Shown: piece by piece, positions 15,501-62,700 of the stretch | Position numbering within the stretch: the stretch's first letter is position 1 | Layout of the letters: the number at the start of each line of letters is the position of its first letter | Assembly (NCBI RefSeq): GCF_041381155.1 | Contig: NC_091135.1 | Coordinates: 55,317,997-55,381,996 of the forward strand | Origin: Argopecten irradians | Lineage: Eukaryota; Mollusca; Bivalvia; Pectinida; Pectinidae | Length of the DNA stretch: 64,000 nucleotides | Direction: 5' to 3' | Notes under the pieces: generated by a model | What the model saw: only the letters and a program-made list of their open reading frames with translations | The model's database searches: none | What the model was told of the DNA's origin: nothing | Translations under genes and position numbers: made by a program

Positions 15501-18500
15501 TCTTACTTTGATATCTCTTCTATCGTTTAAGACCATCTGCATATCTGTATCTTGATAATTAAGCTCACAACGACAGGTTTCCAGGCACACACTAAAATCC
15601 AGGTTTCAGACCTCAATTTTTGACTTATTTGGGCATGTTCAAGGCAAGGTGATTTGTGACGTCACTAATGCAATGACCGAATCGATATTGACATGCTATA
15701 TAGGGATGAACATCTTCTTTTCAAAAAACTAGTATTTAGTTTTCAACGGTCTCAGTGGGGCTCCAGAAGGGTGCATGAAATGGGGCAAATGCATAATTAC
15801 GCATAAATACGTTACGGCCGTCCAAAGGATATATACCAACACTCGAGAGCAGATAACTCTTTAATCACTTACCTACACTCAAGAGCAGATAACTCTTTAA
15901 TCACTTACCTACACTCAAGAGCAGATATCTCTTTAGTTATATACACTCAAGAGCAGATAACTCTTTGATCATATGTATACCTACTCTCAAGAGCAAATAA
16001 CTCTTTAATCCCTACACTCAAGAGTATATAACTCTTTAATCATTTACCTACACTCAAGAGCAGATAACTCTTTATTAATTTACCAACACTCAAGAGCAGA
16101 TAACTCTTTAACCCTTTACCACATGTAAGCGCCTTTGGGCGCAGATAACTCTTTAATCATTTACCTACATACACTTATAATTAAGAACACATAACTCTTT
16201 AATCATTTACCTACACTCAAGAGCAGATATCTCTTTAGTTATATACACTCAAGAGCAAATAACTCTTTAATCATTTACCTACACTCAAGAGCAGATAACT
16301 CTTTAATCATTTACCTACTCTCAAGAGCAGATAACTCTTTAAATATACCAACACTCAAGAGCAGGTAAATCTTTGATTATTTACCTACACTTATGAGCAT
16401 ATAACTCTTTAGTTTATACCTACAATCAAGAGCAGTTAACTCTTTGATCATTTACCTACACTCAATAGCAGCTAACTCTTTTGTTATTTACCTACAATCA
16501 AGAGCAGATAACTCTTTAATCATTTACCTACACTAATGGGCAGGTTACTCTTTAGCTATATACCTACACTCAAGAGCACATAACTGTTTAATCACTTATA
16601 TAATTACCTACACTCATGAGCAGATAACTCTTTAATCATTTACCTACATACACTCAAGAGCACATAACTCTTTAATCATTTACCTACACTCATGAGCAGA
16701 TAACTGTAATCATTTACCAACACTCAAGAGCAGATAACTCTTTCACACAAATAACTGACTGAATTGAGCAAAAGTAGATATAGTTTTATACATAGAATAG
16801 TTGCATTGATTATCAGCCATGGTCGGTTTTGACAGTGACACTGATCATATAATTACCACATATGTATATACTCTTCTGTATCTATATAATTTTTCACCTT
16901 TGAGTAGTTAAAGATTCAATGTATCAGTATCAAAACCAAGAACTAAGTATCCTCTTGACTTGTCACAATCAATGCAAACTTTCACAACTCTTGAAACAAT
17001 TTTTGGTCTATGACATGGAAAAGATACACATATCCAGACCATAGTTCAAACCAGACTGATGTTATAAATTAAATTGATCTTAAGTAATATTTATACATAG
17101 ATATAAATTAAGATTGGTTATTTTGCAAGTCTCTAGAAGATCAATTTAAAATTGTCACAGAGATATTTTGCTGAATTATTTTTGTCTCTAGATAAGATCA
17201 ACTCGCCTAGGGGAGATAATCTAGTACAATCTATCAACAAATTCAGTTAAGAAATTAAACTCTATCAACAACTTGAGTCTGGTGGCCATGCATGTCCAGT
17301 CTAATACAAATTATATAACCTTCATCTTTATTTGTAGGTACAGGGGCCTGGCAAGTTGAGATCTAGATCTCGTATTATAACATTTATGGTACATGTATTT
17401 AGTTGCTATATACAGGGCGTATTTTATAATTACCATACTGCAGACCATGAACCAGTAATGAAAGGATGGGTCTTGCAATACACTTACATGGTCTATTGCC
17501 TTATTGGGCGCTACTCCAGTTTGCTCCTGTCTATCACAGTATTCGATCAGTCAGTTGGCCCAGCTGACATGCACCAGATCTTATTTCTACCATATGTAAA
17601 AACCTACTTCATCATTATTAATTTGATGTGGATTTGAAGAGGATAGATGCCTACTTAGCAAACCTATAACAACATTACCGTATTATAGATGCCTGAACCC
17701 CTCCATGCTTCCATGCAGCCATGGGATAATATATAGGTAACAGTACATTGTATATGATTAATTTTCTATTTCTAGTTACCGCAACAATTGTAGGATGTTT
17801 TAGGGCAAGTTCAGAGCACTTATTTTCAAATTTTGATGAGTCCCAGTGCAAAGAAATATTGATAGTTCAGAAAATTTTGTTGAGTTCCAAAGGAAAATGT
17901 TGAGTCCAGGACTCGTCTATGCAAGACTAGTCCCATAAATCGCAGTTAGGTGAAAAATATGCTACATTTTACCATCTATATCAAGTGATATAGATAATGA
18001 GTGTCTATGTTTATGTATATTGAGAAGCTGCAGTATGTCGGTATTTGTCCAGGTGATATTTAATTTAAGCAGTATACAATATATTCCTGGCTCGAGACAA
18101 AATATTTATGGCTTTTTTTTTGCATCATAACTAAAGGCTGAACATGAGACATTACCAAAGGCGATATAAAGGGAGAAGAAAGACACTCATAAACAAGAAT
18201 CAAGGGAACAGAAAGCCAGAAACTGAATCATGGTCTCTGACAAAGTTGCCCCTACCACAACTTGCAACTGAGAGCCAATACAAAGAAGTATTCTTTGTCA
18301 TTTGAGTGACAGAGACCAAATATATAACTATACGTACAAGCCCCACCAACTGACTACTGGAGCTTTAACAGAGTAAAGATGGTCTCAGTTTTAGTTTCCT
18401 TGTTAATGCAATGTGGATGGTGTTGGTGGTAGAGGGTAAGATTCTCAGTTTTTTTGCATTATTAGTCTACAACTACAGAGAATCAAACTGTTTATTACAG

Positions 18501-45271: not shown

Positions 45272-45769
45272 GGCGCTATTTGCGGCATGTGTTGCTGAAT
45301 GTACCGATTTGCCGGATGACAATCATAGAATAATATTTCCACTAATGGGGGCTGCCATTTTGATTATCACGTGATTTTTGCTGAGCCGCTTCTAACATTA
45401 AAAATGATTTATCTGTTTCAATCAGTTAAATACATATCTTTTTGGTGTATGGAATATAAAAATCAATATATAATAGACAAATATTAAGGTACAAAAGATG
45501 CCAGGTAAAGCAAAATTAATGAAGCGTGAAACCGATAATAAAATTTTGTAAATACTTAAGCGACATAAGTCGGCTGCTGGAACTGAACATGAAAAGATGT
45601 TGAACAGGAAGAAGAATTTGCCAAGAAGCATTTGATTTTCTGAAAAGGAAAATATCACGACGTAAGTTCAAGCTAAACGTTAGTATTGCCTTGCTTTTAG
45701 AGACCAATGCCCTTTGGATAATTTATGTTATTAAATAGGTCTAATAAATTAGATGCAGATTCTACAACG

Positions 45770-45950
45770 TGTAGAAGAACAGGGAAAATACACATTCCTG
45801 TCGAGTGCCCCGACCAGGAATCGAACCCGGGTCTCCGGCGTGGAAATCTACGGCTCTACCGACTGAGCCAAAGAAGCATGCTCCGTCAGCTTAGTGACAG
45901 AGACTGTATTTAACACTATGTACAAGTCACACTGACCCGCTCCTTTTACA
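45770..45950 (-). repeat. TRIM LTR (3' LTR in element sense)
   Basis: 181 bp, TG...CA ends in element sense; contains the tRNA-like unit at about 45804-45878. Confidence 0.9.
45804..45878 (-). other. tRNA-like unit inside the TRIM LTR
   Basis: The minus strand has TGGCTCAGTCGGTAGAGC (A box and complete D arm) and CCGGGTTCGATTCCTGG (B box and complete T arm) at normal tRNA spacing. The acceptor stem pairs at 5 of 7 positions (two wobbles). The anticodon arm does not pair. It is therefore a tRNA-derived pol III promoter-like module, not a functional tRNA gene. The second LTR repeats it at about 46072-46146. Confidence 0.75.
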
Positions 45951-46037
45951 CTACTCCCCCTGTTTTTCTTGAGATTTCCTAAATCTCAACCCGAGACTCT
46001 TTAACCACCTTCCATGGGTTATTTAGTTGGGCGCCAA

Positions 46038-46218
46038 TGTAGAAGAACAGGGAAAATGCACATTCCTGTCGAGTGCCCCGACCAGGAATCGAACCCGGGT
46101 CTCCGGTGTGGAAATCTACGGCTCTACCGACTGAGCCAAAGAAGCATGCTCCGTCAGCTGAGTGACAGAGACCGTATTTAACACTATGTACAAGTCACAC
46201 CGACCCGCTCCTTTTACA
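46038..46218 (-). repeat. TRIM LTR (5' LTR in element sense)
   Basis: 181 bp, about 97% identical to the other LTR; contains the same tRNA-like unit at about 46072-46146. Confidence 0.9.
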
Positions 46219-46430
46219 AACGTAACGTGTTACATTTTTGAACTGAAAGGTTTACTTGCTGTACAGTAGGCCTATATTGTAACTGTAAAGCTTACTACAG
46301 TACACACTGTATACAGTACCGAATAAGTCACTGTACAGTACAACAGTCATAGAAACAAGTGGAAAGGGGAGGGATATGTTAAATTTAACCTTTTTTTTAA
46401 CTGATGAAATATAATAGTCATGGTAACGCA

Positions 46431-59700: not shown

Positions 59701-62700
59701 ACATTATGATCTCAGGATAAAACTGCAGCCTATATTATGAACCCAGTAGGATATCACAGCCAACATTATGATCTCAGGATAAAACTGCAGCCTATATTAT
59801 GAACCCAGTAGGATATCACAGCCTACATTATGATCTCAGGATAAAACTGAAGCCTATATTATGAACCCAGTAGGATATCACAGTCAACATTATGATCTCA
59901 GGATAAAACTGCAGCCTATATTATGAACCCAGTACGATATCACAGCCTACATTATGATCTCAGGATAAAACTGCAGCCTATATTATGAACCCAGTACGAT
60001 ATCACAGCCTACATTATGATCTCAGGATAAAAGTGCATCCTACATTGTATATTATGAACCCAGTAGGACAAAACTGCAGCCTATATTATGACTCCAGTAG
60101 GATACAAAAGTCAGTATCTAGTACGGACTGATTTAAGGACATGTCAACATGTTTGTCATTGTGTTTGGGTGCAGATGATATGCTTTAGATACAGATATCA
60201 ATGAAGGATTGGTCCTAAATTATGACACAGGTGGTCTTGTAAGATCTAATGAGTAGAGTTCTGATATGATGATTTGTTTTCATACCTCAATGGATATTGG
60301 GTTTGTCTGTAAATAAAACAAATGCTGACATTTTTTCTTCAGTCTTTGTAACATGGTTATAATTGCATAGTCCCGACGAAGTGTTGTTATTTTTCGGGTC
60401 GATCCAAACTCCAAGATGGCCGCCACAGCAGCCATCTTGAAAACACATTTTGAACTTCTTCTCATGTTCTACCACATCGATTTGGTTAAAACTTGCATGA
60501 AATGATCCTGCATGGTCCCCACAAAGTGTTGTTATTTTTCGGGTCAATTCGAAATCCAAGATGGCCGTCTTAGCCACCATCTTGAAAACACATTTTGAAC
60601 TTCTTCTCAAGTTCTACTGGTGTGATTTGGCTGAAACTTGCATGAATTGATCCTGACATGGTCCCGACAAAGTGTTGTTACATCTCTTGTTGATTCCAAA
60701 TCGAAGATTGCTGCCATGTAACTATATCTTATTAATTTCCTATACGATTATTGCCAAGGTAGTCATATGACCATTAAGGGCCTTGGGCCTCTTGTTTTAT
60801 ATATATTGTTTTTTTATCGGCAATCTATTGAAAATCATAAGGTTTGATGAATTTAGCTATGAAAATCATTCAAATGGACAAACAAACATGTATGGTGCCT
60901 TAAAAACATAAGATAAAACACAGAATTTATGCACTGTACAATTATTGTTTTGTATGCCAAGGTCTACATGTATGTTTAAATGGAAACATACCAGCATAAA
61001 TTACTTTATACTTAATAATAACACCGTATATTATAAACCACAACATGGCTTCATGGTCTGGCCGTAGGTACTCATATCACTGCACTGTAAAGTAATTCTA
61101 TATATAATGATATTTGGCAGTACTGCCAAAAATCATTTTCAGAACTTTCTTGTACTTGTAAAATTAAAACCTATGCATTGTAAATATTTGTAATTCTCAA
61201 AATGTTGGTAAACTTGGTGGTAAATTACATACCGGTATTAAAAGATTTCCCTGGTATGACACAAATTATATCTTAAGATGTTTACATCTTACGTAATCAC
61301 CTGAGGCTGTCAACTTTATTATCTTGTGTTACTGTATTGTTATAGATTTCAGGTTTAAACATATCAGAATGAGTTACAGTTTAGTTGTATCAATGATTTA
61401 TCCAACTGCGGAATTTTGTAATTAATAATAGGAGCAATTAACCAATCACCAATCAGCCTGCCAGTATACATAAATGATAAATTTCAGGGACCACTTGTCC
61501 CCCGTTGACAGGAGGTCGTCTACGATTGTACAGCATGAAGTTCTGTCCGTATGCCCAGCGTACCAGACTTGTGTTGGAATACAAGAAAATTCCGTAAGTA
61601 TCTTGTCTTTTTGGTTACCTCAAAAATATGTTCTATTTCAAAGTTTTCATGGTTTATGGTTACTAAGTTCTTCATTGTATTACTAGAAACAATTTAAACA
61701 GATAAAAATCTAAACAAAAAATTAAAGATTCTCTACCTCCGACAGCATATACGAATAACTAATAAGTAATCATTTAAACAATAACTGATATTTAATCATA
61801 TATATCTGTTTAATTATACAGCATATTTACATATAACTAATACAAAAGTACATATAGAATAATTTATTTTGCTCTTAGTACATGCACAATCAATACTTTA
61901 TTACGTATAGGATATAGTGCATATACAGCGTCGTGCCATGGATTTCTTTTGGGATGCAATTCATTATTTTTAATATTTTACCTTAAAGTAAAATAAAATG
62001 TTCAAACTTTTCAAAGTTGTTAATGGTTTTTAGTAAGAAACTATGGTAACGGAAGAAAACTACTAATTTGCCTGCTCCTATTTTTGATAGATAAAAAATA
62101 CCATTTGTCAACGGTGTAGCATCTTTAAATTAACAGCATATATAACACTGAGAGATCAGAAAGAAAAATATTTTATTAGAATCTAGGCATCTATAATTTT
62201 ACATCCAGTAGATTACTTTTGTACACCTTTATAGTTTTGGATTATGAAAGGAAACAAAATCCAATACCAATATGGGTGTACGTAAATTATTATTTGATAT
62301 TTAATCACAGATATGAAACGGTAAACATCAATTTAAAGAGTAAGCCTGACTGGTTTCGAGATCGTTACATTAATGGTTTGGTGCCTGTCCTGGAGAAGGA
62401 TGGCACTGTGATTTATGAGTCGACTGTTTGTAACGAGTATTTGGATGAAGTTTACCCCGAGCCACGACTCATACCCACCGACCCAGTACTCAAGGCCAAA
62501 GACAAGATGTTAGCAGAACAATTCGGGAAGGTTTGTAGTTCATTATGTCTCCCCCAAAGGAAATTGTATGTAGTAAAGTTATTGCCCAAAGCCCATACAG
62601 GACGATTATAAGTACATATGTACCAGTACTTTATTGATGTTTTGATATGTTTGATATTTTCACTCAGACACTTTCACAGTAAAGACAAATCGTACACCAG

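What the first reader, a model, noticed from the sequence alone, without database searches (positions are those of the whole stretch)
45770..46218. Miniature LTR retrotransposon whose LTRs carry a tRNA-like pol III module (Cassandra-like in an animal)
Seen: 181 bp TG...CA direct repeats, a 4 bp AACG duplication, a TGGCGCCCAAC primer-binding site one base after the LTR, a polypurine tract, and an 87 bp interior. Inside each LTR is a D-arm/A box (TGGCTCAGTCGGTAGAGC) and a T-arm/B box (CCGGGTTCGATTCCTGG) at tRNA spacing, in the same direction as the element. Known: TRIMs lack genes, and plant Cassandra TRIMs carry 5S RNA with a pol III promoter in the LTR. Inference: this element may be transcribed from the LTR by pol III and packaged by a partner retrotransposon; an animal TRIM built on a tRNA would be a parallel invention.
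Basis: partly seen in the sequence, partly recalled or inferred. Interest (0 to 1): 0.9.

Follow-up and report, generated by a model that had tools for sequence, protein, structure and literature searches.

The report
Tiny LTR retrotransposon carrying tRNA promoters
A gene-less 449-bp retrotransposon with a tRNA-like promoter in both of its ends is one of hundreds of copies in this animal genome; it belongs to a kind described in 2024 (Helenus), and one locus elsewhere in the genome seems to preserve a failed reverse-transcription product that still holds a copy of the priming tRNA.

Summary
Window 45770-46218 (minus strand) is a complete 449-bp TRIM: two 181-bp LTRs, 87-bp interior, PBS, PPT, a 4-bp AACG duplication, and a tRNA-like module in each LTR. 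The genome holds many copies of this family (fam1) and of a second family (fam2) with a different LTR body but the same tRNA boxes, PBS core and TTTT tract. In 46 loci chosen only by the PBS core, 44 have LTRs of one family on both sides, so it is not a SINE. The proposed "animal Cassandra" was published by Kojima in 2024 as Helenus, TRIMs with tRNA-like LTRs and, in animals, 4-bp duplications, including 51 bivalve families. This is a new member of that kind. Mechanistic addition: in both families a TTTT tract starts 19-20 nt from the LTR end, as expected if pol III transcribes from the tRNA in the 5' LTR to the tract in the 3' LTR (inferred, no RNA data). Most surprising is locus L159: a fam1 LTR and an inverted fam2 LTR joined through an 18-nt tRNA-Lys-type sequence, with a perfect 4-bp duplication outside. 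It reads as an integrated dead-end plus-strand strong-stop product of two co-packaged families. The same 24-nt junction occurs at two further loci, not read.

The parts
45766..45769 (.). target-site duplication AACG, copy 1
   Evidence: sequence
45770..45950 (-). 3' LTR (element reads on the minus strand), 181 bp
45785..45788 (-). TTTT tract in 3' LTR, proposed pol III terminator (inferred)
   Evidence: element position 431
45805..45877 (-). tRNA-like module in 3' LTR
45951..45962 (-). polypurine tract CAGGGGGAGTAG
   Evidence: sequence
45951..46037 (-). 87-bp interior; no ORF of 120 aa or more
46026..46036 (-). primer-binding site TGGCGCCCAAC (tRNA-Lys type, recalled), one base after the 5' LTR
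46038..46218 (-). 5' LTR, 181 bp
46053..46056 (-). TTTT tract in 5' LTR; must be read through if pol III makes the full RNA (inferred)
   Evidence: element position 163
46073..46145 (-). tRNA-like module in 5' LTR; proposed RNA start at about 46145 (inferred)
46085..46095 (-). B box GGTTCGATTCC (5' LTR)
   Evidence: LTR positions 124-134
46121..46138 (-). A box region TGGCTCAGTCGGTAGAGC (5' LTR)
   Evidence: LTR positions 81-98
46219..46222 (.). target-site duplication AACG, copy 2
   Evidence: sequence

Best explanation
This is a non-autonomous, gene-less LTR retrotransposon (TRIM) of the Helenus kind, a copy of a recently active family. Shown: paired LTRs, PBS, PPT, 4-bp duplications with a palindromic target preference, tandem arrays, and a sister family with the same functional modules. 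Inferred: RNA polymerase III starts at the tRNA-like module in the 5' LTR, reads through the TTTT there, and stops at the TTTT in the 3' LTR. That gives an RNA of about 361 nt (46145 down to 45785) whose repeated R region is the tRNA-like module itself. The RNA is packaged by particles of an unidentified Ty3/gypsy-type element, primed by a tRNA-Lys, copied, and inserted by that element's integrase. fam1 and fam2 RNAs can sit in the same particle, as locus L159 appears to record.
For: Paired structure: 30 of 30 fetched loci; 44 of 46 loci chosen only by the PBS core (two rows, L096 and L033, were re-read as fam1/fam1). Exact 4-bp duplications: 20 of 25 simple elements, 5 array loci left out; 10 of 11; 21 of 33 with both ends defined among the 46; over all distinct paired rows 34 of 50 for fam1 and 20 of 36 for fam2, array-internal junctions included. 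Same palindromic target bias in both families: T at -2 in 28/34 and 16/20, A at +5 in 27/34 and 12/20. LTR pairs identical in 6 of 29 elements, so recent insertions. One copy of each family compared: the LTRs share the TGTA start, A box, B box/T arm, TGCATTTTC (TGTATTTTC in the window's other LTR) and ACA end; the interiors share the extended PBS and a purine tract. TTTT lies near the LTR end in 26 of 32 fam1 and 40 of 46 fam2 near-full LTRs, with none elsewhere in those LTRs. fam2 has only about 33 bp upstream of its module, little room for a pol II promoter. L159 holds TGGCGCCCAACGTGGGGC between LTRs of the two families, inside a CCTG duplication; its junction is letter for letter what mispriming of a plus-strand strong-stop DNA predicts.
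Against: No RNA evidence. Within families the boxes and the TTTT decay after insertion like the rest of the LTR: box rates 0.33 and 0.46 against 0.42 per site; the fam1 boxes changed more often (1.0 and 1.64) than the rest (0.5). In fam1, 85% of other CpG-free 4-mers are better kept than the TTTT; in fam2, 55%. Conservation is therefore seen only between the two families, which may share ancestry. A TTTT in the 5' LTR would stop many transcripts early. The module folds no better than shuffled sequence (z -0.66). No partner was found: 0 of 10 sampled gypsy leaders carry this PBS, from 150 scored of 2343 integrase candidates. The PBS matches tRNA-Lys for only 11 nt before diverging, and the tRNA letters are recalled.
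Confidence: 0.88

Rival explanations
1. The 181-bp unit is a tRNA SINE (or a tRNA gene cluster) that happens to lie twice.
For: tRNA-like module; lone LTRs exist, e.g. in L018.
Against: Paired at about 268 bp with an interior between them in 30 of 30 loci and paired in 44 of 46 PBS-chosen loci of both families; 4-bp duplications outside the pair; acceptor and anticodon stems broken, so not a working tRNA.
Confidence: 0.01
2. A TRIM transcribed by pol II from an ordinary LTR promoter; the tRNA module is a passive SINE relic.
For: No RNA data exclude it; fam1 has a TTAAATA stretch upstream of the module; module boxes decay after insertion like the rest.
Against: Two families whose LTR bodies are otherwise unlike keep the A box, B box and a TTTT tract at nearly the same distance from the LTR end (one copy each); fam2 has about 33 bp of upstream LTR.
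Confidence: 0.15
3. L159 is not a reverse-transcription fossil but two independent insertions, or a later rearrangement, that happen to be inverted neighbours.
For: Only one of three loci with this junction was read; a fam2 LTR in opposite orientation also lies near an element in L060.
Against: One CCTG duplication encloses both LTRs; the joint holds an 18-nt Lys-type sequence, while all 52 intact TTGGCGCCCAAC sites in the 71 loci not chosen by PBS continue TARATRA; the same 24-nt junction is at three places.
Confidence: 0.15

Closest known systems
Helenus (Kojima 2024, PMC10886601)
   Same: TRIM size (311-1263 bp there; 449 and about 355 bp here), tRNA-like sequence with A and B boxes in both LTRs, PBS on a tRNA 3' end (tRNA-Lys among those in bivalves), PPT, 4-bp duplications in animals, coexisting families in one genome, inferred gypsy-type mobilisation, tandem arrays (zebrafish).
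   Different: No published consensus could be compared (sequences not held). Not met in the sections read: a TTTT tract (find: 0), the palindromic target bias, inter-family chimeras, strong-stop heterodimers.
Cassandra (plant TRIM with 5S rRNA in LTRs; PMC7215508, PMC10853983, passages)
   Same: pol III promoter and terminator in the LTR of a gene-less TRIM; tandem arrays.
   Different: 5S-derived, not tRNA-derived; reported from plants.
biv-TRIM (PMC6934838, abstract and first part of results)
   Same: Bivalve TRIM with a short interior and a GGGGAGA purine tract; tandem arrays.
   Different: LTR 202-218 bp, PBS not identified unambiguously, conserved TGATCCCAAAGGAC in the interior, absent from the interiors seen here.
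Ty3/Ty1 dead-end plus-strand strong-stop DNA (review PMC5371799, section 6 and passages)
   Same: A first plus-strand strong-stop DNA copies 12 nt of the tRNA and is discarded; the tRNA sequence is not inherited in the PBS, as in the Helenus interiors here.
   Different: There inferred from genetics and particle DNA; here (L159) apparently integrated in a genome as a two-family dimer with an 18-nt copy.

Membership tests
Helenus | short gene-less element with two LTRs (TRIM) | tested here: met
   449 bp, LTR 181, interior 87; no ORF of 120 aa or more there
Helenus | tRNA-derived sequence with A and B boxes in both LTRs | tested here: met
Helenus | PBS complementary to a tRNA, and PPT | tested here: met
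   extended PBS 299 exact sites, 1080 with up to 3 mismatches, controls 0; PPT. Assignment to tRNA-Lys rests on recalled animal tRNA-Lys(CUU) letters; the one tRNA-Lys gene read here (L072, TTT) does not match
Helenus | 4-bp target duplication in animals | tested here: met
Helenus | sequence relation to a published Helenus family | not tested
Helenus | gypsy partner with the same PBS region | tested here: inconclusive
   2343 integrase candidates, 150 scored; 10 leaders read, none with this PBS
Helenus | functional pol III promoter | not testable with these tools
   needs RNA; also unproven in the founding paper
Cassandra | 5S rRNA sequence in the LTR | tested here: not met
   Rfam gives only tRNA above its cut-off
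biv-TRIM | LTR 202-218 bp and conserved interior segment TGATCCCAAAGGAC | tested here: not met
   LTR 181 (fam1) or about 130 bp (fam2); segment absent from the two interiors printed (paper)
tRNA SINE | single unit without LTR pair, PBS and PPT | tested here: not met

The most novel reading that the evidence does not exclude
Dead-end plus-strand strong-stop DNAs of these tRNA-promoter TRIMs repeatedly join tail to tail through the tRNA copy (3' GGGC priming on GCCC of another PBS) and are integrated as inverted double LTRs with proper duplications. This would be an undescribed class of retroelement derivative that records in the genome which tRNA primed and which families shared a particle.
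Probability: 0.5. Interest if true: 0.62.

Novelty: new member of a known kind. Interest (0 to 1): 0.45.

Why it matters
It confirms with many genomic copies that tRNA-promoter TRIMs (Helenus) are mobile families, and gives a concrete, testable transcription model (start at the tRNA, stop at the TTTT in the second LTR). If the L159 reading holds, genomes keep readable records of aborted reverse transcription, which would let one identify primer tRNAs and co-packaged families from sequence alone, a gap for TRIMs whose partners are unknown.

Tried and rejected
Host species: 16 large contigs and 846 Mb first suggested bay scallop; rejected, because the muscle myosin exons (4 pieces at C5:45.93 Mb) are only 85-94% identical to the scallop chain in the PDB (that this chain is bay scallop, and that bay scallop has 16 chromosomes, is recalled). 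A haemocyanin search gave nothing, but the control rang nowhere either, so it says nothing. A search by assembly size named no host.

tRNA-Lys(TTT) as primer: pattern TGGCGCCCAACTAGGG has 0 sites and the L072 gene ends differently; dropped. C9 stretch with a Lys-type PBS as partner: no ORF over 140 aa, a repeat array; dropped. Selection on the boxes within families: not seen. The TTTT count was wrong (offset slip) and was redone. Two rows that looked mixed (L096, L033) are cross-hits of the tRNA module. L079/L080 looked like truncated LTRs but L080 carries an inserted DNA element in the LTR, and L079 shares it. IMG/VR scan for the PBS core: 0. The 18-nt copy as a self-priming hairpin: it folds no better than shuffles, so a two-molecule event is preferred, as the two different LTRs also say.

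L159-like junctions in the literature: the listings of searches showed no paper that I recognised as describing one; weak evidence only.

Full report
WHAT IS THERE. The element at 45770-46218 reads on the minus strand. Each LTR carries a tRNA-like module with intact D and T arms and damaged acceptor and anticodon stems: the promoter boxes are kept, a working tRNA is not. The module folds no better than shuffled sequence.

GENOME COPIES. The host genome (846 Mb, 16 large contigs) gave 45 rows for the element, 43 nearly full length at 97-100% (40 of 1480 candidates scored, so a lower bound). 30 of 30 fetched loci are LTR-interior-LTR, some in tandem arrays (L012 and L020 overlap). Exact 4-bp duplications: 20 of 25 simple elements, 5 array loci left out, and 10 of 11 more (L031 and L034 share flanks and are probably one insertion assembled twice). 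LTR pairs differ at 0-9 positions, 6 of 29 identical.

A SECOND FAMILY. An A-box/B-box pattern has 732 exact sites, 0 in the reversed control; some are tRNA genes. Besides fam1 it reveals fam2: LTR about 130 bp, interior about 93 bp. In one copy of each the LTR bodies differ, yet both keep the A box, B box with T arm, and TGCATTTTC; the interiors share the extended PBS. That PBS core has 299 exact sites and 1080 with up to three mismatches; the fam1 module has 510 with up to three; controls 0. Forty-six loci on C3 and C4 (40 fetched plus 6 held), holding 48 of the 299 sites and chosen without regard to their LTRs, include 44 with LTRs of one family on both sides, some of them partial, and 21 exact duplications of 33 with both ends defined. 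Both families prefer T at the second base before and A at the second base after the 4-bp target, a palindromic bias (the A is weaker in fam2, p 0.007).

CHIMERAS. Among 20 PBS sites on C1 and C2, 19 of them fetched because no exact module lay near in the listing, two are mixed. L088 has a fam2 5' LTR, fam1 interior and fam1 3' LTR inside a CATG duplication. L089 has a fam2 LTR lacking its first 34 bp, so that it begins at the tRNA start, then fam1 interior and LTR, without a duplication. None of the 46 loci is mixed once the two cross-hit rows are set right. Because CATG is a common target (4 of 34 fam1 duplications), the L088 duplication is only moderate evidence for joining before integration. 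Inter-element recombination is already reported for Cassandra (title of Yin et al. 2014 in the reference list of PMC10853983).

TRANSCRIPTION MODEL (INFERRED). In the copies compared, the only TTTT of each LTR starts 19-20 nt from its end. It is present in 26 of 32 fam1 and 40 of 46 fam2 near-full LTRs (16 and 23 elements of the 46 loci), with none elsewhere in them, and in 54 of 58 LTRs of the younger fam1 set. A pol III RNA from the 5' module to the 3' tract would carry the module at both ends as R. Weak points: the 5' tract must be read through; within families the tract is not better kept than other 4-mers (85% of them are better kept in fam1, 55% in fam2); and the boxes change after insertion about as fast as the rest or faster.

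THE STRONG-STOP FOSSIL. L159 (C6:9657560-9658300) was found because a Lys-type 18-nt PBS (49 sites) coincided with a fam1 module (of which only the first 100 places are listed). It reads: CCTG, fam1 LTR (96%), TTGGCGCCCAACGTGGGGCGCCAATTT, fam2 LTR reversed (93%), CCTG. The interiors do not hold this sequence: in 71 loci not chosen by PBS, all 52 intact TTGGCGCCCAAC sites continue TAAATAA, TAGATAA or TAAATGA (overlapping loci counted twice). The 18 nt equal the complement of an animal tRNA-Lys 3' end (recalled). A model in which the fam1 plus-strand strong-stop DNA, extended 18 nt into the tRNA, primes with its 3' GGGC on GCCC of a fam2 strong-stop PBS gives the observed joint letter for letter. 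In Ty3 such first strong-stop DNAs copy 12 nt of the tRNA, are discarded, and dead-end products pile up in particles (PMC5371799 section 6). The same 24 nt occur at C3:9699583 and C7:46263041; the only other matches, two overlapping ones at C7:18138916-18138969, look like an unrelated repeat, and the control has 1+1. The C3 and C7 loci could not be read.

WHAT IS KNOWN. Kojima 2024 (abstract, results, discussion, legends/tables and passages seen) defines Helenus with these features and lists bivalves of the Pteriomorphia. A search for other papers naming Helenus with TRIM found only that one. The biv-TRIM paper (abstract and first part of the results) describes a different family. Two Cassandra papers were seen in passages.

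PARTNER. Many gypsy-type integrases with long frames exist (150 scored of 2343 candidates), but none of 10 leaders read has this PBS. The partner is open.

VERDICT. Ordinary in kind (Helenus), well confirmed; the strong-stop heterodimer is the part that deserves a follow-up.

Noticed in passing
L159:39-384 (C6:9657598-9657943): fam1 LTR and inverted fam2 LTR joined by an 18-nt tRNA-Lys-type sequence inside one CCTG duplication; the same 24-nt junction at C3:9699583 and C7:46263041 (not read).
   Followed up: partly
L088:204-595, L089:232-600: Mixed elements: fam2 5' LTR with fam1 interior and 3' LTR; L088 has a CATG duplication, L089 starts at the tRNA start and has none.
   Followed up: partly
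G000:C9:182075-210246: Five Lys-type 18-nt PBS sites at about 5.5-kb steps (one double step); the stretch 181600-187000 has no ORF over 140 aa.
   Followed up: partly
L079, L080: DNA element with AGGGGTTT-type ends inserted in the upstream part of a fam2 LTR (L080); L079 shares its sequence.
   Followed up: no
window 15940-16029: ARAGORN tRNA-Asn call inside a 36-bp tandem repeat (15834-16743); probably spurious.
   Followed up: partly
window 62180-62611: Open frame matching omega-class glutathione S-transferases, probably an exon.
   Followed up: partly
L031 and L034 (C2 and C65): Same element with the same flanks on a chromosome and a small contig, probably an unmerged haplotype.
   Followed up: no
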